A DNA stretch of 62,571 bases from Phycisphaerales bacterium (lineage in GTDB: Bacteria; Planctomycetota; Phycisphaerae; Phycisphaerales; UBA1924). Position 1 is the first letter of the stretch, and each line of letters opens with the position of its first letter. Below, piece after piece: positions 23,101 to 32,464 of the stretch. The translations under genes and the position numbers were made by a program. The stretch covers positions 1 through 62,571 of the forward strand of contig JAFIFZ010000019.1 in NCBI GenBank assembly GCA_020831775.1. The letters are read 5' to 3'. Under the pieces are notes generated by a model that saw nothing but the letters and a program-made list of their open reading frames with translations, was not told where the DNA came from and ran no database searches.

Positions 23101-23489
23101 GCTGAATCTCCCATTGCTCCACGAGGCGCCGCCCGCGGCACGCGGGCCCCGCCCAAATCAAGAGCGGAGATCATCAACCCGCAAGGTCCGAGAGCGCTCG
23201 ATCGCCGATTGTCCCAAGTTTTCATGTTGTTGCAATAGACGTGTCGCTTTTTAGCGTGTGAACAAAATATAAACCCCTCGGACGCCCTCCATTCGCCGCT
23301 GACCGACCCCGCACCACGAACTTGCAAACCACGACCCGTGCCGCCTGACACCGTCTTGTCAGCCGCAGGCACTCCGCACAGCGCACTGACCACGCCTGTG
23401 CGCCCGTTCCCGTTGATACCAAACAAATACCTTGCACTAGCCCCGCCCCCGGGGAACCATGCCCTCACGCACACGCCGAAAGGCGAGAG
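23101..23489. promoter_or_regulatory. Divergent intergenic region upstream of the terminase-containing operon
   Basis: A 389-bp gap between two divergent genes that must hold both promoters. The middle (about 23220-23275) is A/T-rich compared with its flanks, including an AAAATATAAA stretch and a small CGC-T5-AGCG palindrome. No convincing -35/-10 pair or coding frame was found. GAAAGGCGAGAG directly precedes ATG 23490 and serves as its ribosome-binding site. Confidence 0.45.
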
Positions 23490-23963
23490 ATGAGGGCCGA
23501 TCCGATGCAGCAGACAGACCAGCGGGCCTGGGACCCCGACGCCGCGGCAGACCTCCGGCGCAGACGCGAGGGCGCCATGGCCGAACGCGTCCGACACCGC
23601 GCCGCCGCACTCCCAAAGCGCGACCGCGCCCTGCTCGACGCCGTCTACCGCGACGGCCGACCCGTCGTCGAGCTCGCGGCGATCATGAACCTCCCCGCCC
23701 CCGTCGTCCGCAGACGCGTCCGCACGCTGGTCCGCCGCGTGCTCTCCCCCGAGTACGGCTTCGTGCTCGCCCACCGCGATGCGTGGACGCCCACACGACG
23801 CAAGGTCGCCGACGCCTGCGTCATCGAGGGGCTCTCGATCCGCACCGCCGCGGCAAAGCTCCGCCTCAGCCTGCACACCGTCCGCGCCCAACGCTCGATC
23901 ATCAAGGCGCTGGCCGACGCGGACCTCCAAGAGCCGACATCCGGCCCATGGGGGCGCAAGTGA
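23490..23963 (+). CDS. Double helix-turn-helix protein, first gene of a four-gene operon
   Basis: A 157-residue Arg-rich protein. Two HTH-like segments are visible: RPVVELAAIMNLPAPVVRRR (about 56-75) and LSIRTAAAKLRLSLHTVRAQ (about 115-134). Both resemble sigma-70 region 4 or small-terminase DNA-binding helices. It could regulate the operon or act as a terminase small-subunit analogue, given the large-subunit-like gene three positions downstream; neither is proven. The stop overlaps the next gene's GTG start. Confidence 0.7.
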   Translation: MRADPMQQTDQRAWDPDAAADLRRRREGAMAERVRHRAAALPKRDRALLDAVYRDGRPVVELAAIMNLPAPVVRRRVRTLVRRVLSPEYGFVLAHRDAWTPTRRKVADACVIEGLSIRTAAAKLRLSLHTVRAQRSIIKALADADLQEPTSGPWGRK

Positions 23964-24652
23964 ACACGCTCATCACCTCAAGGCGACCGACCGATCGCCT
24001 GCGCCTCGCCGCCGCGGCTTTCGGCCTGCGTCCTGTGCATCGCCCAAAGCCAACCGCACAATCACGGCCCGACACGCGCACGCTCGACGCCTGCCGACGC
24101 GCGGCCGACCGCATCCTCGACACGCTCGCCCCCGGGCAAACCCTCCTGCTCTCTGGCCCCAGCGGCAGCGGCAAGTCCACCGCCCTCGCCCTTCTCAACG
24201 CCCGTCTCGCTCGCCGAAAACGCCCGCGCTACCGCGTCGACCACCGACGCCCGGCGCTGCAAGACCGCTGCGTGATCGACCTCGTGCCGGGCGACCCGGC
24301 GCAGGCCTGCAGAGCCCTCGCCCGCGCCGGCCTCGGCGATGCGACGCTGCTGGGACGCACGCCGAACGAGCTGAGCGAGGGCCAGCGCATGCGCCTCCGA
24401 CTCGCAATCGCGATGACCCGCGCCGAGGCGACGCCCGGCACGTGGATCCTCATCGACGAGGCGTGGTCGACGCTCGACGAACCCACGGCGTTCACCACCG
24501 CCTCCGCACTCCGCCGCTGGGCGAAATCAGCGCGCGTCCGCGTCGTTTCCGCCGGTTCGCCCGAGCGTCTGGCGGACCTGCTCCAGCCCGACGCCCTGGT
24601 CTACCTCGGCGTTGACTCCAGTGTGCACACGATCGAACGGGGGAGAGCATGA
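23960..24652 (+). CDS. ABC-type ATPase (COG2401-like partner)
   Basis: A 230-residue soluble ABC-fold ATPase with no membrane segments. Walker A LLSGPSGSGKSTAL lies near 65-74, the signature NELSEGQRMRLRLAIAM near 137, and Walker B with the catalytic glutamate in WILIDEAWSTLDEP near 162. The compact size and the adjacent GNAT gene match COG2401, where an ABC ATPase is fused to a predicted acetyltransferase; here the two are split. GTG 23960 overlaps the preceding stop (GTGA); ATG 23948 is an alternative. The role is unknown; nucleic-acid-linked ATPase activity is inference. Confidence 0.82.
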   Translation: MNTLITSRRPTDRLRLAAAAFGLRPVHRPKPTAQSRPDTRTLDACRRAADRILDTLAPGQTLLLSGPSGSGKSTALALLNARLARRKRPRYRVDHRRPALQDRCVIDLVPGDPAQACRALARAGLGDATLLGRTPNELSEGQRMRLRLAIAMTRAEATPGTWILIDEAWSTLDEPTAFTTASALRRWAKSARVRVVSAGSPERLADLLQPDALVYLGVDSSVHTIERGRA

Positions 24653-25422
24653 ACCAGCCGAAGACGATCCCGCCCGAGCTCCGCAACGCCATGACCCGCG
24701 CGCGTCCTCCCCTCTCGCTGGCGATCGAGCCGGGCGCGATCGACGACTACCGATCCCTCGCGCACACGCACTACGCCAAGGCAGAGCCGGCGCTGCGGGC
24801 GCTGGTGCTGCGCACCGTCGACGCCCGACGAGGCTCGCTCGCGGGCGTGCTGGTCGTCTCGTTCCCCACGCTCAACGGGGCGTGGAGGAAACACGCCTGG
24901 CCCGAGCTCTTCGCTGCAACCGATCGAAAACTCGCGGCACGACGCGTCAACACGCTCGTGCGACGCATCTCGCGCGTGATCGTCGACCCACGCTACCGGG
25001 GCTGCGGCGTCGGCCGACGCCTCGTCCGCGCCTACCTCGACAACCCGCTGACAGACCTGACCGAGGCCGTCGCCTCGATGGGCGCCCTCTGCCCCGTCTT
25101 CGAACGCGCGCACATGCGCCGCGTCCACACGCCCACGCCCGCAAGAGACGCACAGCTGCGCCGAGCCCTCGACGAACGCGCCATCACGCCCGAGCGGCTG
25201 CTGCGCGCCTCGGCCCCGAGACTGCTCGGGCGCGACCCCTCGCTGGGCGAACACCTGCTGCGCTGGGCCAACGCCTCACGCGCCACACGCAAACTCACCG
25301 CCGGCTCCCCCGCCGAAATCGCGCCGATCGCCGCAGCCGCGCTGCTCGCGCCCAAAGCCATCTTCGTTTACGGCACAACACGAGGGGGACCCGATGACCG
25401 AAAGCACGCCCGACACTCTTGA
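24649..25422 (+). CDS. GNAT-fold acetyltransferase-like protein (COG2401-like)
   Basis: A 257-residue protein with a GNAT core. The acyl-CoA-binding motif A is VIVDPRYRGCGVGRRLVRAY near 111-130, followed by EAVASMGALCPVFERAHMRRV, which parallels the conserved MA-x-NPFFEKAGM-type segment of COG2401 proteins. The first ~60 residues include a SLAHTHYAKAEPA segment. Phage Mu Mom, a GNAT-like DNA-modifying enzyme, is a possible functional analogue but sequence identity is not claimed. The start overlaps the ATPase stop (ATGA); its end overlaps the terminase-like gene by 29 bp. Confidence 0.75.
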   Translation: MNQPKTIPPELRNAMTRARPPLSLAIEPGAIDDYRSLAHTHYAKAEPALRALVLRTVDARRGSLAGVLVVSFPTLNGAWRKHAWPELFAATDRKLAARRVNTLVRRISRVIVDPRYRGCGVGRRLVRAYLDNPLTDLTEAVASMGALCPVFERAHMRRVHTPTPARDAQLRRALDERAITPERLLRASAPRLLGRDPSLGEHLLRWANASRATRKLTAGSPAEIAPIAAAALLAPKAIFVYGTTRGGPDDRKHARHS

Positions 25423-26899
25423 TCAGCACTCGAACTCGCCCTGGCCAAGACCAAGATCCCGCGAAGCCCTGCACCGCTGGCTCCGCGAGGTGCTGGGGCT
25501 CACCGTCCCGCGCTCGGCGCTGATCGAGGGCCACGCCTCGCCCTTCGACTACCTCTGTTTCGCCTTCTTCGAGGAGCCGCCCGAGGACGACGGGCCCGAA
25601 GCGAGCACCGACGACCGCGACTGCGTCGTCTGGGCCAACCGCGGCGGGGGCAAGACCTTCCTCGGCGCTGTCGCCACGCTCCTCGACCTCGTCTTCAAGC
25701 CCGGGATCGCCGTCCGCATCCTCGGCGGCTCGCTCGAACAGTCGGCGCGCATGCACGCCCACCTCGCGGCGCTGCTGGACAACCCGGCGCTCTCGCCGCT
25801 CGTCGAGGGACGCATCACCCGCAAGGGCGTGAAGCTCGTCAACGGGTCGGAATGCCAGATCCTCGCCCAGTCGCACACCTCCGTCCGCGGCACGCGCGTG
25901 CAGAAACTCCGGTGCGACGAGGTCGAGCTCTTCGACCCGGAGATCTGGGAAGCCGCACAGCTCGTGACCACGAGCAAACGCTGCGGCGACCAGCTCGTCC
26001 GGGGCAGCGTCGAAGCGCTCAGCACCATGCACAAGCCGCACGGGCTGATGTTCCGCATCGTCAAGGAAGCGCCCGAGTCCGGACGTAGCGTCTTCCGCTG
26101 GGGCGTCGTCGATGTGCTGCAGCGCTGCGACGACACGCACCATTGTGAGTCATGCTCGCTCAAGGGCGAGTGCAAGGGCGGGGCGAAACGACGAGCCGAA
26201 GACGAAGCGGGGCACATCCGCATCGACGATGCGCTGACGCTCAAGTCCCGTGTGTCGAAGCAGACCTGGGAGGCGGAGATGCTCTCGCTGAGGCCCAGCC
26301 GCAGCGATTGTGTGTATCCAGAGTTCGATCCGCGGACGCATGTGGTTCAGGCCGTGCCGCCCGATCGCGATGGCTGGGCGTGGATCGGCGGGATGGACTT
26401 CGGCTACAGGTCCGACACGGTCTTCCTGCACGCGGGGCTCGACCGCCGCGGCGTGCTCTACATCGTCCGCGAGCATGTGCGAAGCTGCATGGTGCTCGAC
26501 GAACACATCGACGCAATCAGGGCCGGGAGCTGGCCCAGTGTTGAATGGATCGGCGTCGACCCGGCCGGACGCAACCGCCACGAGCAGACGGGCGCGAGCA
26601 ATGTCGGCCTGATGCGCCGCGCGGGGCTGGAGATCAAAGCGAGAAAGATCCCGCTGCTGGCGGGGATCGAGCTGGTCAGAACCCGCCTCCGCCCCGCCGA
26701 CGGACGCGGCCCGGGGCTCTACATCTCCGAAGCCTGCCCGAAGCTGATCGAATCGCTGCAGCGGTATCGCTTTCCATCGGACGACCCGACCTCGCTCAAA
26801 CCGGTCAAAGACGGCGCCGACCACGCCGCCGACGCCCTGCGCTACATGGTCCAAAACCTCGACAAGCCGACAAAGGTGGCGTTCAAGTCATGGACATAG
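25394..26899 (+). CDS. Terminase large subunit-like protein (ATPase plus RNase H-fold nuclease)
   Basis: A 501-residue protein with the full layout of phage terminase large subunits, which pump DNA into capsids and cut it. ATPase: WANRGGGKTFLG (Walker A, ~79-88) and RCDEVELFD (Walker B, ~175). Nuclease: GGMDFGYRSDT (~334), WIGVDPAGRNRHE (~387) and DHAADALRY (~475) supply acidic metal ligands. A Cys cluster, C-x5-C-x2-C-x5-C, lies at ~253-268 between the domains. No portal, capsid or tail genes follow. GC content matches the host, so it seems long resident. The fourth gene of an overlapping operon. Confidence 0.87.
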   Translation: MTESTPDTLDQHSNSPWPRPRSREALHRWLREVLGLTVPRSALIEGHASPFDYLCFAFFEEPPEDDGPEASTDDRDCVVWANRGGGKTFLGAVATLLDLVFKPGIAVRILGGSLEQSARMHAHLAALLDNPALSPLVEGRITRKGVKLVNGSECQILAQSHTSVRGTRVQKLRCDEVELFDPEIWEAAQLVTTSKRCGDQLVRGSVEALSTMHKPHGLMFRIVKEAPESGRSVFRWGVVDVLQRCDDTHHCESCSLKGECKGGAKRRAEDEAGHIRIDDALTLKSRVSKQTWEAEMLSLRPSRSDCVYPEFDPRTHVVQAVPPDRDGWAWIGGMDFGYRSDTVFLHAGLDRRGVLYIVREHVRSCMVLDEHIDAIRAGSWPSVEWIGVDPAGRNRHEQTGASNVGLMRRAGLEIKARKIPLLAGIELVRTRLRPADGRGPGLYISEACPKLIESLQRYRFPSDDPTSLKPVKDGADHAADALRYMVQNLDKPTKVAFKSWT

Positions 26900-29087: not shown

Positions 29088-29215
29088 CCCTCCCCCGGCC
29101 CAGTCTCCGGCCCGTCTCTGGCCCGTTTCAGGCCGGAGGCCCGGGTCCCTCCGCCGCTGGCCGACCGCCCACCGCCCCCGCTACACTGGAGCGCCCGGAC
29201 CGAGAGGTCCGCCGT

Positions 29216-29289
29216 GCCCTCGTAGCTCAGTTGGATAGAGCATCGGTTTCCTAAACCGAAGGTCGCAGGTTCGAGCCCTGCCGGGGGTG
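29216..29289 (+). tRNA. tRNA-Arg (CCT)
   Basis: A complete 74-nt cloverleaf. The acceptor stem GCCCTCG pairs with CGGGGGT through two G-U pairs. The D arm is GCTCAGTTGGATAGAGC, the anticodon loop TTCCTAA (anticodon CCT) and the T arm GCAGG-TTCGAGC-CCTGC. CCA is not encoded. The leftward OLD-type gene ends only 4 bp past its 3' end, a common insertion site for accessory DNA. Confidence 0.96.
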
Positions 29290-29293
29290 TTTT

Positions 29294-31339
29294 TCACTGA
29301 CCACGGGTATCCGACCGGCGACCAACACGAGTCGGCACTTTCGGCGTGGTCTCTTTCTGGTCTGCACCATGGAGTATCGTGTTCAGATCGGCAAAAAGTT
29401 TTTCGAATCGCTCGAGGGCAGCATCGAGCTCAGGAAGCTTGATATCCAAGCCCTGTCTGACCATGAAGTCGGCGGGATCAGTGTGGTTCAGCTCCGGGAT
29501 CTCGGGTGGCATCACCCTGAAATGCTCTTCAACATACTTCATGATTCGACCGGGCGTTGCCCCATCTGCAACCTTCGGCGGCATGATAATGTTCCCACCC
29601 TCAAGCGAGTAGCACTGATTCACCAGATCAACATAGGCGTTATCACCAAGTAGATCTTCAATATCCGCTTCTGGGCGATTGGCGTACGCGTCAATGGTAA
29701 GGACACGACCCGCCTTGAGAAGTTCGGACTCCTGCAACTCTCGCACCTTGCCTTTGCTGCCGTCAGCAAAATCGCAGACGACAGCGCACTCGAGATCGTT
29801 GCCGCCGAAAAGGTTCATGAATGCGGCGATCTTCGTCACACTGCCGCATGGCGTCACCGTCCATCGCGGGTCGAGGGTTGCACGACCAAGTGCCGCAAGC
29901 TTGCGCCGGAACCAGTCAATGTAGAGCAAATCGGATGGCCCCTCGACCAACACATTATACTTGCTGATGAACAAGGTCTGTGTAATCTCGTACCCAAGGC
30001 ACGCACGGAGCGGAAAGAGCGTAGCGTGGTCCGCACGGAGAATCTGGTCAGACACTTTTGTGCCACGATGAGGATCCGTGTCTGGATCATCTTCTGGCGA
30101 CACTTCTTGATACACATCTTCGACAGTTCGAGTTCGCATGATGTCGGACGCGTCGATCATAAACGGCGAGTGGGTCGTATAGGCAACTTGGTATGTCGGC
30201 GACAGCCGCTCCTCAATGTAGCGGAGCAGATCTGCCTGCGCTGACGCGTGCAGCGCTAGCCCGGGCTCGTCGAGTAGGACAATAAGATTGCCACCGATGT
30301 TTCGGCGTAGTTGGTTGAACCAGACGAGAAACGAAAAGAACCAGATGAACCCGCTGCTTCGCTGGTCGAAACCGGTCGTCGCTCCGTGTCGAGTGTTCTC
30401 GATCCGCGTCCGTAGGATCCAACCCTCGTTGAACGGGGCTTCGTCCCCGGGCCGAGAGTGCTCGAAACGAAACCGCATCTTGAGGTATTCGCTCTGGCTC
30501 CAGTACCTCACCAACTCGCGCGTCAATTTGTTTTCAGCAGCTTCCAGCTTGGCGGATAGCTCCTCATAATTGTCGATCTCAGCGAACTTCTCGACCGTCA
30601 TACCGATCATTGCCAGGAGAGATTCGAAGACACGATCCTCTTCAGTCAGACTCTTCTGTGCGACTCGCGTGTTGAATGCGTTGACCGCCAGTTGGCCGGG
30701 CATCCGCAGATACTGGGAAAAAAATGCGAAACTCGGGGTGCGCTGCCAGATCACATCGCGAGCAGCATCTCTCGGACTCTTTTCGCCAAATCGCGACTGA
30801 ATTAACCCTGCCAGCGCTTGCTGCTGCTGCTGTTGCTCGGATGGTTCGCCGAGCTGCTTCACAAGCTGCGATACCGTCGAGACACCCTTGAACTCGGTGC
30901 GGTCCTTCGCCTGGAAATCGACCTCCTCTAAAAGCCCCTTGATGACCTCTTCTTCGTCGAGGTCGTATTCCAGGTAGACTGCATTGTTGTAGTTCTTCGT
31001 GATTCGGATCGCGCCAATTGTGCGTGCCGCTGGCCCTACGACATCCTCGAGCGCGGAGTAGTCGCCTTCTTCGAGTTCCCAGGTGGTGCAAACAACCACA
31101 GCGGGATTGCGCTCGTGCGACGCCTCATAGTCTGACAACTCGTGCCTCGGGTAGTCACGGGTAACATCAAAGTTGCCGTCAAAACCCGCTGTCGGCTTGA
31201 GCTTCGCCAAGGCCTCAAGAATGGCGGTTTTCCCCGCCTCGTTTTTTCCGACGAGACAGGTTATCTTCTCGTCCAGCGAGAACTCCGTCGAATCCTTGAT
31301 ACACTTATAGTTCGTTATGCGTGCAGCCTTTAGTTTCAT
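29294..31339 (-). CDS. OLD-family ATP-dependent endonuclease (AAA plus TOPRIM)
   Basis: A 681-residue protein with an N-terminal ABC/SMC-like ATPase: CLVGKNEAGKTAILEAL (Walker A) and IVLLDEPGLALHASAQADLL (Walker B). The C-terminal TOPRIM nuclease has NVLVEGPSDLLYIDWF with its catalytic Glu, then CAVVCDFADGSKGK and ADIEDLLGD. This is the OLD/GajA layout, but no UvrD-like GajB partner lies beside it, so it is a solitary OLD nuclease. Lower GC, a poly-Gln run near 172 and the tRNA-Arg junction suggest acquisition. An antiviral role is inference. Confidence 0.87.
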   Translation of the reverse strand: MKLKAARITNYKCIKDSTEFSLDEKITCLVGKNEAGKTAILEALAKLKPTAGFDGNFDVTRDYPRHELSDYEASHERNPAVVVCTTWELEEGDYSALEDVVGPAARTIGAIRITKNYNNAVYLEYDLDEEEVIKGLLEEVDFQAKDRTEFKGVSTVSQLVKQLGEPSEQQQQQQALAGLIQSRFGEKSPRDAARDVIWQRTPSFAFFSQYLRMPGQLAVNAFNTRVAQKSLTEEDRVFESLLAMIGMTVEKFAEIDNYEELSAKLEAAENKLTRELVRYWSQSEYLKMRFRFEHSRPGDEAPFNEGWILRTRIENTRHGATTGFDQRSSGFIWFFSFLVWFNQLRRNIGGNLIVLLDEPGLALHASAQADLLRYIEERLSPTYQVAYTTHSPFMIDASDIMRTRTVEDVYQEVSPEDDPDTDPHRGTKVSDQILRADHATLFPLRACLGYEITQTLFISKYNVLVEGPSDLLYIDWFRRKLAALGRATLDPRWTVTPCGSVTKIAAFMNLFGGNDLECAVVCDFADGSKGKVRELQESELLKAGRVLTIDAYANRPEADIEDLLGDNAYVDLVNQCYSLEGGNIIMPPKVADGATPGRIMKYVEEHFRVMPPEIPELNHTDPADFMVRQGLDIKLPELDAALERFEKLFADLNTILHGADQKETTPKVPTRVGRRSDTRGQ

Positions 31340-31408
31340 GCCCCCGCTGACCTGCAGTCCGCGTGCCAGAAAATAGAGGCGATTAGCAGCTTACGGGCCA
31401 AAATGCCG

Positions 31409-31454
31409 TGCCAGAATGGCAGAGCCAGGTGTTTCGCGTGCCGAAATGGCACGC
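31409..31454. promoter_or_regulatory. Two short palindromes upstream of the OLD-type gene
   Basis: TGCC-AGAAT-GGCA at 31409-31421 and GCGTGCC-GAAAT-GGCACGC at 31436-31454 (7-bp perfect arms), with a half-site GTGCCAGAAA near 31360. They share the core TGCC(A/G)-AAT-GGCA. Position 70-115 bp before the leftward start suggests operators, but they could also be mobile-repeat hairpins. Confidence 0.5.
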
Positions 31455-31525
31455 AAGAGGCGTGGCTCGGCTTGTCCCCCAGAGGCGGGTCTGGGGCCTA
31501 CCGTTTTAATGGAGGACGCTCTGGA

Positions 31526-31834
31526 GTGCTCTCGATTGCTCTGAAAAACCACTTCCTCAGATCCTCGATCGACGGCGCCAACCTCGCCGCGACTGTCCTG
31601 CGCGCCCTCGACGATGGCGAGACCGTCTGCATCGAGTTCTCAGGAGTCGAGATCATGACCCCCTCGTTCGCCAACGCCTTCGTCATGCTCCTCCTCGAGC
31701 GTTACGAGGTCCCCCAGCTCCGCGAGCGGTGCGAGTTCCTCAACAGGTCCGACCATGTCGTCTGCGCCATGAACCGGTCCGTCGAGCGGTACCAGCAGGG
31801 CATCCGCCTGACCACCCAGCGCCGCCCGGCCTGA
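31526..31834 (+). CDS. STAS-like DUF4325 domain protein
   Basis: A 102-residue protein made only of a STAS-like domain of the DUF4325 type. It shows CIEFSGVEIMTPSFANAFVM with the conserved PSFANAF turn, and LNRSDHVVCAMNRSVERY after it. Such domains are regulatory and often pair with histidine-kinase-like ATPases or sit near defence genes. GGAGG lies 10 nt before GTG 31526; the frame is open upstream to 31403 through repeat sequence, which I exclude. Confidence 0.8.
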   Translation: MLSIALKNHFLRSSIDGANLAATVLRALDDGETVCIEFSGVEIMTPSFANAFVMLLLERYEVPQLRERCEFLNRSDHVVCAMNRSVERYQQGIRLTTQRRPA

Positions 31835-31873
31835 CCTCCCCCAACCCGCCCATTTCGCGTACACTCCGCCTGC

Positions 31874-32464
31874 ATGGGCCAGCGACGGCACCATTACGAG
31901 CGGGCCTTTGAGGCGTATCTCCGTGGGCGGCGGGTCCCGTTTGTCTCCGTCAACGAGGCCCGCAAGACGCTCCTGCCCGAGGGGTCGGATCTGCCGCCGG
32001 GGCTGAAATCCTTTGACTACGTGATCTACGGCCAGCCCCCGTCGCTCCTCGTCGAGGTCAAGGGGCGGAAGCTGCCCGAGCCTCGCTCGGGCGACCCCCT
32101 CCGGCCCGCCCCGCGATCCGCCATGCAGTCCTGGGTGACCGAGGACGACATCACCTCGCTGCGGGTCTGGGAGTCGTTGTTCGGCGAGGGGTTTTGCGCG
32201 GCGTTCGTGTTCATGTACGAATGCCGCAGCCAGCCGCCCGACGGCCTCTTCCAGGAGATCGCCTCGTTCGAGGGGCGTTGGTACGCCCTGCGTTCGATCC
32301 TGCTGGAGGACTATGTGGGCGCCATGCGTCCCCGCAGCCCCCGCTGGCGGACGGTCGACCTGCCGGCGTCGAGCTTCGAGAGCCTCAGCCGCCCGTTCTG
32401 CCCGGGCCGCTCGGGGGCGGGGCTCTTCCCCGACCCGCCCCTGCACCAGCCGCTGACGGTCTAG
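31874..32464 (+). CDS. HYExAFE-family protein (putative PD-(D/E)XK nuclease fold)
   Basis: A 196-residue protein with the diagnostic N-terminal HYERAFEAYL that names the HYExAFE family, known mainly from planctomycetes. KSFDYVIYG followed by LLVEVKGRK gives the D...ExK arrangement of the PD-(D/E)XK nuclease fold, so nuclease activity is plausible though unproven. The last ~30 residues are variable. It lies 39 bp after the STAS-like gene and may be co-transcribed. Confidence 0.85.
   Translation: MGQRRHHYERAFEAYLRGRRVPFVSVNEARKTLLPEGSDLPPGLKSFDYVIYGQPPSLLVEVKGRKLPEPRSGDPLRPAPRSAMQSWVTEDDITSLRVWESLFGEGFCAAFVFMYECRSQPPDGLFQEIASFEGRWYALRSILLEDYVGAMRPRSPRWRTVDLPASSFESLSRPFCPGRSGAGLFPDPPLHQPLTV

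What the first reader, a model, noticed from the sequence alone, without database searches (positions are those of the whole stretch)
23490..26899. Orphan terminase in an operon with a split COG2401-like ABC ATPase and GNAT protein
Four overlapping genes encode a double-HTH protein, a soluble ABC ATPase, a GNAT-fold protein with the COG2401-type motif A and FxxAxM segments, and a terminase large subunit with intact ATPase and nuclease residues. No portal, capsid, protease or tail gene is within the window, and GC content matches the host, so this is not an ordinary prophage. COG2401 proteins fuse ABC ATPase and acetyltransferase and have no settled role. GNAT-fold Mom of phage Mu modifies DNA adenine. 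A domesticated phage packaging or DNA-modification module, perhaps for defence or DNA transfer, is an inference worth testing.
Basis: partly seen in the sequence, partly recalled or inferred. Interest (0 to 1): 0.87.

Follow-up and report, generated by a model that had tools for sequence, protein, structure and literature searches.

The report
Headless phage DNA-packaging operon
Many bacteria of the class Phycisphaerae carry in their own chromosomes a phage DNA-packaging motor next to a likely DNA-tagging enzyme pair, often with a phage-style repressor, but without the phage head, which suggests a viral machine taken over for a still unknown job on DNA.

Summary
Window 23490-26899 encodes four overlapping genes: double-HTH protein (A), ABC ATPase (B), GNAT (C) and a large terminase with intact ATPase and nuclease residues (D). 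It is not a stray prophage gene: in 80 named TerL loci C lies upstream of D in 74, and the other six have under 760 nt of upstream DNA. Relatives often add a ParB-like gene (E) and a small HTH/long-helix gene (F) between C and D. A divergent CI/LexA-type S24 repressor (R) abuts A in 69 of 86 loci, with a palindromic operator in 33 of 70 intergenic regions versus 0 of 70 controls. Two phages hold ParB, ABC, GNAT, a DNA-binding gene and TerL directly before portal and head genes; the bacterial version stops at TerL. Of 20 module-bearing genomes, HK97 portal is over cut-off in 2 and capsid in 1. The four window genes are under purifying selection. Best reading: a domesticated, repressor-controlled, headless packaging/DNA-marking module. 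The DNA-damage trigger is inferred; defence, repair or DNA transfer is unresolved. The window's own locus lacks E, F and R. My literature searches, in an open-licence library only, found no description.

The parts
23417..23436 (+). conserved element TACCAAACA-N4-CCTTGCA upstream of A (two similar 7-mers 11 bp apart; the second may overlap a -35 box)
   Evidence: Pattern in 32 of 87 upstream regions, 0 of 87 within-module controls, 200 shuffles mean 0.035, max 1 (pattern written after looking at the sequences). Only site in the 3.55 Mb own genome at up to 2 mismatches; exact match at the module in 6 of 9 family genomes searched.
23490..23963 (+). gene A: double-HTH (sigma-70 region 4-like) DNA-binding protein, likely regulator
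   Evidence: Pfam PF08281 1.4e-7 and a second HTH; upstream of B in 68 of 80 loci; dN/dS 0.026 to sister L051.
23960..24652 (+). gene B: soluble ABC ATPase
   Evidence: PF00005 4.7e-10; phrog_293 4.5e-14; catalytic motifs conserved; dN/dS 0.21.
24649..25422 (+). gene C: GNAT-fold protein related to phage family phrog_886
   Evidence: phrog_886 1.8e-10; AlphaFold2 mean pLDDT 85.3; GNAT fold, best Z 13.3, Mom 8bv8 Z 12.2, tied with many; dN/dS 0.16.
25394..26899 (+). gene D: terminase large subunit, ATPase and nuclease residues intact, invariant cysteines C245, C251, C254, C260
   Evidence: phrog_2 1.9e-15; invariant columns; profile match to solved terminases 5oe8 1.2e-11 and 5oea 1.9e-11; dN/dS 0.12.

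Best explanation
The four genes are the core of a phage DNA-packaging front end taken over by planctomycetes and kept in their chromosomes without a capsid. Shown: the set ABC-GNAT(-ParB-small HTH protein)-TerL is kept in order with intact catalytic residues, in most close relatives next to its own CI/LexA-type repressor, often with a palindromic operator. Inferred: DNA damage or invader DNA activates RecA, the repressor cuts itself at its Ala-Gly bond, and A and the operon are switched on. The ABC-GNAT pair then marks DNA (acyl modification of a base, as proposed earlier for an ABC-coupled GNAT), ParB and the small HTH protein pick the loading site, and TerL pumps along and cuts DNA, sparing or selecting marked DNA. 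With no head to fill, the outcome is DNA cleavage or clearance rather than packaging. The window's locus lacks repressor, ParB and small-protein genes but keeps A-D under selection, so A-D can presumably act without them.
For: Operon order: C upstream of D in 74 of 80 loci and A-B-C-D complete and in order in 68; the six without C have under 760 nt upstream. Class-wide, of 123 genomes with a listed TerL match of 288 bits or more, 71 have C directly upstream on the same strand, 22 elsewhere on the contig, 12 on another contig; of the other 18, 7 have a weaker C match. R divergent and adjacent to A in 69 of 86 loci; Ala-Gly, Ser and Lys invariant in 10 of 10; Peptidase_S24 over cut-off in 3 of 3 tested. 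Operator GTTC-N10-GAAC in 33 of 70 versus 0 of 70 controls; 500 Markov shuffles mean 0.44, max 4. dN/dS 0.026-0.21. Distances of C and D correlate, Spearman 0.78 over 96 loci, maximum 0.054 in 20 label shuffles. Phage counterpart with portal and head genes. Of 20 module-bearing genomes, PF04860 is over cut-off in 2 (4 with any match at 0.001) and PF05065 in 1. Ordinary genes next door in the loci tested.
Against: No experiment. The damage trigger rests on the repressor's family; the own genome has no full-length R (best 2.4e-14) and the whole window has no GTTC-N10-GAAC. 37 of 70 R-A regions lack the exact dyad and 17 of 86 loci lack adjacent R. Of 123 class genomes with strong TerL, 11 have no C match and 34 have C farther off or on another contig. 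14 of the 15 genomes of same-order family f87 listed lack TerL. The TerL tree is not cleanly vertical: two chromosomal rows, L254 and L258, fall outside both the other 36 and the viral clade, and L254's family f96 also has a row inside. B correlates less with the other genes (B-D 0.39, shuffled maximum 0.19). No DNA modification measured; Mom relation inconclusive. F not confirmed as small terminase (best E 0.5). Divergent head genes could escape PF04860 and PF05065.
Confidence: 0.48

Rival explanations
1. A gene transfer agent or other particle system whose head and tail genes lie elsewhere in the genome; TerL packages host DNA into it, and A is its activator.
For: Intact TerL, phage-style repressor, an HTH regulator gene; other GTAs spread their genes over several loci (recalled, no call).
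Against: HK97 portal over cut-off in 2 of 20 and capsid in 1 of 20 module-bearing genomes; neither matches in single-contig genomes G095, G422 and G127. The element before A is unique in the own genome. The T5-type portal search rang nowhere, also not in the controls, so it shows nothing.
Confidence: 0.14
2. An anti-phage or restriction-like defence: the GNAT-ABC pair tags self DNA and TerL, with ParB and F, attacks untagged invading DNA.
For: Modifier-like and nuclease-motor genes in one operon; SOS-type repressor; a published prediction of base acylation by an ABC-coupled GNAT (PMC7824862, passages seen); deleting an SSU5-like plasmid raised phage and plasmid acquisition in Klebsiella (PMC8969562, passages seen; the passages name no responsible gene).
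Against: Class-wide retention with ordinary neighbours is unlike patchy defence genes; PADLOC has no match for A, C, D, E or F at 1e-3, only two ATPase models for B and two regulator models for R.
Confidence: 0.25
3. Decaying remnants of prophages acquired again and again.
For: Phage counterpart exists; the own locus lacks E, F and R; TerL of G185 has one in-frame TAA; L254, L258 and viral contig L212 suggest some transfer.
Against: Same gene order in 68 of 80 loci, purifying selection in the window lineage, 36 of 38 chromosomal TerL rows grouping together, largely by host family, conserved operator.
Confidence: 0.08

Closest known systems
ParB-ABC-GNAT-TerL module of an SSU5-type phage (PhiR41_1) and a Nickievirus (phiK7B1): phrog_723/930, 293, 886, 867, 2
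   Same: Same protein families, ABC before GNAT, a DNA-binding gene before TerL.
   Different: The phages have portal and head genes right after TerL; ParB precedes ABC there but follows GNAT in Phycisphaerae; small unmatched genes lie in between. A was not found in phiK7B1; R was not searched in phages. That PhiR41_1 is SSU5-type is my reading neighbours.
COG2401 (MK0520-type ABC ATPase fused to acetyltransferase)
   Same: Same two domains in the same order; fused in planctomycete families f27, f90, f99. The name MK0520 is attached to a phage relative.
   Different: Two separate genes in the window and most class relatives read. The COG profile itself was not available here.
Phage Mu Mom (GNAT that modifies adenine)
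   Same: GNAT fold; Mom crystal structure Z 12.2 over 140 residues.
   Different: Tied with many other GNATs; no profile similarity.
Gene transfer agents
   Same: Chromosomal phage-derived TerL kept by the host.
   Different: No head genes recognised with the module. I did not compare sequences with GTA terminases; the passages seen of PMC7947584 name only a Zavarzinella prophage among planctomycetes.

Membership tests
Terminase large subunit | Walker A/B ATPase plus RNase H-fold nuclease acidic residues | tested here: met
   Invariant G84-G86, K87, T88, D175, E176, D335, D389, D473, D476, H477, D480 in 15 of 15 aligned sequences; phrog_2 1.9e-15.
COG2401 ABC-acetyltransferase | ABC ATPase and GNAT fused in one protein | tested here: not met
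   Separate overlapping genes in the window; fused in other families. May work like it, not filed as it.
Mom DNA-modification enzymes | specific similarity to Mom beyond the GNAT fold | tested here: inconclusive
   Foldseek rank 5, E 7.6e-4; Z 12.2, within about one unit of the best; hhalign probability 0.3%.
Mom DNA-modification enzymes | modified adenine in genomic DNA | not testable with these tools
   Needs mass spectrometry or long-read signal.
Gene transfer agent / prophage | portal and capsid genes with the terminase | tested here: not met
   Own genome has no PF04860 or PF05065 match; of ten first downstream neighbours in class relatives 7 match non-head families and 3 nothing. Divergent heads not excluded; upstream flanks not scanned by family.
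CI/LexA-type autocleaving repressor (gene R of relatives) | HTH plus S24 domain with Ala-Gly site and Ser-Lys dyad | tested here: met
   PF00717 over cut-off in 3 of 3; A186-G187, S225, K264 invariant in 10 of 10. Which residues these are in LexA/CI is recalled. Absent next to the window operon.
Small terminase subunit (gene F of relatives) | N-terminal HTH and oligomerising helices, before TerL | tested here: inconclusive
   Three N-terminal helices then a 37-residue helix, mean pLDDT 75.4; position before TerL; no family or confident fold match.

The most novel reading that the evidence does not exclude
Planctomycetes hold a standing, lysogen-like genetic switch in their own chromosome that on DNA damage releases a headless viral packaging motor plus a DNA-base acylating ABC-GNAT pair: a new kind of cellular DNA-processing system in which a terminase sorts, moves and cuts marked or unmarked DNA inside the cell.
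Probability: 0.33. Interest if true: 0.92.

Novelty: new variant of a known kind. Interest (0 to 1): 0.75.

Why it matters
Terminases are known to me only as motors that fill virus or GTA heads. A terminase kept by selection in a bacterial class without a recognised head, in an operon with a probable DNA modifier, would mean the motor does useful work on naked DNA. It also offers a way to learn what the ABC-GNAT-ParB genes of phages do: 745 plasmid records, mostly enterobacterial, match the fused ABC-GNAT query, though I read the TerL context in two phages only, and I know of no settled role. Here evolution has removed the head and kept the rest.

Tried and rejected
GTA with HK97 head: searched, negative in most of 20 genomes. 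T5-type portal phrog_145: useless, because no control rang. R regulon: TGTTCNC-N6-GTGAACA with up to one mismatch was found in 9 of 10 genomes, with reversed-pattern controls up to 4+3 in G477. G480 has 11 places, one at the module; the eight stretches I read show no damage-response gene by eye, four lying beside a family of secreted-looking proteins, so I do not read it as an SOS box. Whether A binds the direct-repeat element is a guess; in 3 of 9 family genomes (G414, G418, G442) no site within two mismatches was found at the module, and reversed-pattern controls gave hits in 6 of 9. Mom kinship by profile failed. Fold search for F found only weak hits, to a phage protein 2ao9 (E 0.5). Phage records: C none, B 28, D 14, all under 60% identity. 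IMG/VR relatives of D (L131-L152, 39-44% over about residues 9-326) appear to have ATPase and nuclease in separate ORFs (HMM ranges for seven of them; L131 read) and show no C in the DNA held. Other IMG/VR contigs do hold C: L211-L214, L212 with D.

Literature, listings only unless said: COG2401 no paper; Phycisphaera plus terminase one ecology paper; Mom/ABC ATPase/ParB/terminase (PMC7824862 passages); domesticated terminase in planctomycetes; fused ABC-acetyltransferase; momylation; MK0520/SSU5 (PMC8969562 passages); Mom structure; GTA in planctomycetes (PMC7947584 passages); orphan terminase. None seen describes this operon. The library holds only open-licence papers; the 2013 paper I recall as the source of the ABC-GNAT prediction was not held.

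Rows dropped and biases: G382 was left out of the 123 because its TerL match is split and weaker. L040 TerL was left out of alignments for its in-frame stop. L060, L103 and L117 were left out of the R count because A lies near the contig end, and 20 further loci because no A was found at 1e-10. The GTTC dyad was the best of a scan over word lengths 4-6 and spacers 0-15, the second element was spotted by eye, so their controls are after the fact; one search did not include the window, which was checked. The 80 loci are the best of 373 relatives, hence biased to close kin; one search is the wider, weaker sample, from capped place lists. In one search the group labelled virus holds L022, which is a planctomycete genome contig, by my mistake in labelling. 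ORFs of neighbours were chosen by a rough GC-based picker, not a gene caller. On checking I lowered three odds slightly (best explanation 0.50 to 0.48, novel case 0.35 to 0.33, interest 0.76 to 0.75), because the TerL tree is less clean than I had written; two rivals rose by 0.01.
Full report
What is there. Window 23490-26899 (contig C51 of a 3.55 Mb genome, 95% complete) encodes four overlapping + strand genes: A, a 157-residue protein with two HTH segments, the first like sigma-70 region 4; B, a 230-residue ABC ATPase; C, a 257-residue GNAT protein; D, a 501-residue terminase large subunit. PHROG profiles tie B to phrog_293 and C to phrog_886, both phage families. A near relative, MAG PLM2.Bin57 (Phycisphaerales; L051, 96% identical TerL), has the same four genes; dN/dS between the two is 0.026 (A), 0.21 (B), 0.16 (C) and 0.12 (D), so all four proteins look kept by selection.

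Conservation. In a phylum-wide draw of 246 genomes, TerL of this kind was found in 15 of the 16 other genomes of the class and the GNAT in 39 of 246. In 248 class genomes a TerL profile hits 150, weak partial hits included, and a GNAT profile 160. Of 123 genomes with a listed TerL match of 288 bits or more, 71 have C directly upstream on the same strand (gap up to 2.5 kb), 22 elsewhere on the same contig, 12 on another contig; of 18 without a listed C place, 7 have a weaker GNAT row and 11 none (from hand-copied lists). In 80 named loci, the best of 373, local profiles find C upstream of D in 74; the six without it have under 760 nt before D; 68 have A, B, C and D in order. Two of these 80 records bear cyanobacterial titles and are probably mislabelled.

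Extra parts in relatives. Between C and D, nine of the 80 loci have a ParB-like gene E matched at 1e-50 or better and 15 a gene F; 25 more have only a weak, mostly short match to E. E resembles ParB_N (one of three over cut-off) and phrog_723. F has no family match; its model is three N-terminal helices and a long helix, as small terminases are built (recalled), but the fold search was not decisive. In family f27, outside the class, B and C are one fused protein directly before a more distant TerL in 8 loci, while a ninth, L222, has TerL without them; in the two f27 loci whose neighbours I tested these include ketopantoate hydroxymethyltransferase, RpoN and RecR. In f90 and f99 the fused protein occurs without TerL in the five stretches read. 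Family f6 keeps TerL and C apart in several genomes.

The repressor. Divergent from A lies a conserved HTH plus Peptidase_S24 protein R in 69 of 86 loci with at least 900 nt before A. Its Ala-Gly bond, Ser and Lys are invariant in ten aligned sequences, the layout of CI/LexA repressors that cut themselves when RecA is active (recalled). In ten genomes without adjacent R, a long R match lies elsewhere (one has an in-frame stop, one is in two pieces). The R-A region carries GTTC-N10-GAAC in 33 of 70 loci, against 0 of 70 in equal-length stretches inside the module; 500 Markov shuffles give mean 0.44 and at most 4; none of 16 loci without adjacent R has it, nor has the window. A second element, TACCAWACA-N4-CCTTGCA, matches upstream of A in 32 of 87 loci including the window, 0 of 87 in controls, and is unique in the window's genome at up to two mismatches. 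The window's genome has no full-length R (best 2.4e-14), and L051 has none beside A, so this lineage lost R or holds it in DNA not assembled; E and F are also missing from the locus.

Origin. In Nickievirus phiK7B1 (L049) and Escherichia phage PhiR41_1 (L273), which groups with SSU5-type phages, the order is ParB, ParB, ABC, GNAT, a DNA-binding gene, TerL, portal, with small unmatched genes in between; in PhiR41_1 scaffold and major head genes follow. The planctomycete operon looks like this front part cut off before the portal. HK97 portal is over cut-off in 2 (any match in 4) and capsid in 1 of 20 module-bearing genomes. The first downstream neighbours in ten class relatives are menaquinone synthesis, flavodoxin, chemotaxis receptor, alcohol dehydrogenase, DUF6677 (two), a sub-threshold transposase match, and three unmatched. 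A TerL tree places 36 of 38 chromosomal rows together (93/90), largely by host family, beside a fully supported clade of 22 IMG/VR contigs. Two chromosomal rows, L254 and L258, fall outside both, and viral contig L212 sits with family f93, so some transfer or old duplication is likely; the root is a midpoint only. Distances of C and D correlate at 0.78 over 96 loci, those of B and D at 0.39; no neutral marker was compared.

How it may work. Shown: intact motor, nuclease and ABC motifs, a GNAT fold, an operon, and in relatives a repressor with an operator. Inferred: damage or invader DNA releases R; the ABC-GNAT pair acylates DNA, as the authors of PMC7824862 say they had predicted for an ABC-coupled GNAT (passages seen); TerL translocates along and cuts DNA chosen by mark or by ParB/F. 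Structure gives only a GNAT fold: phage Mu Mom scores Z 12.2 where the best row scores 13.3. Whether it serves defence, repair or transfer is open; class-wide retention speaks against ordinary defence, missing heads against a GTA.

Verdict. A real and conserved headless packaging module, undescribed as far as my searches reach (open-licence library only). The parts are known phage families, so I file it as a new variant of a known kind and keep the bolder reading in the section on the most novel reading.

Noticed in passing
window 29215-32464: A tRNA-Arg gene (29215-29290) lies within four bases of an OLD/AriA-like AAA plus TOPRIM gene (29294-31339, PADLOC AriA 1.4e-25), with a 196-residue gene without Pfam or PADLOC match beyond at 31874-32464: possibly a small defence island at a tRNA.
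   Followed up: partly
L131 1127-1636, 5628-6134, 7911-8858; also L133, L138, L140, L144, L146, L151: IMG/VR contigs whose TerL ATPase and RNase H nuclease parts appear as separate ORFs, sometimes with two nuclease-like ORFs.
   Followed up: partly
window 25394-26899, residues 245-260 of D: Four cysteines between ATPase and nuclease domains, invariant in 15 of 15 aligned sequences, a possible metal site in a terminase.
   Followed up: no
L296, L297, L299, L300 (G480): The palindrome TGTTCAC-N6-GTGAACA or a near copy recurs beside a family of secreted-looking proteins in one genome.
   Followed up: partly
L231-L235: Fused ABC-GNAT proteins without TerL nearby in class families f90 and f99: a stand-alone form of the same pair.
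   Followed up: no
L240, L243: Family f29 genomes have a ParB-like match, ABC and GNAT in a row with no recognised TerL in the 20 kb read.
   Followed up: no
L059, L130: Records titled Cyanobacteria and Leptolyngbya carry the module with TerL 54% and 50% identical to the window's; probably mislabelled bins.
   Followed up: no
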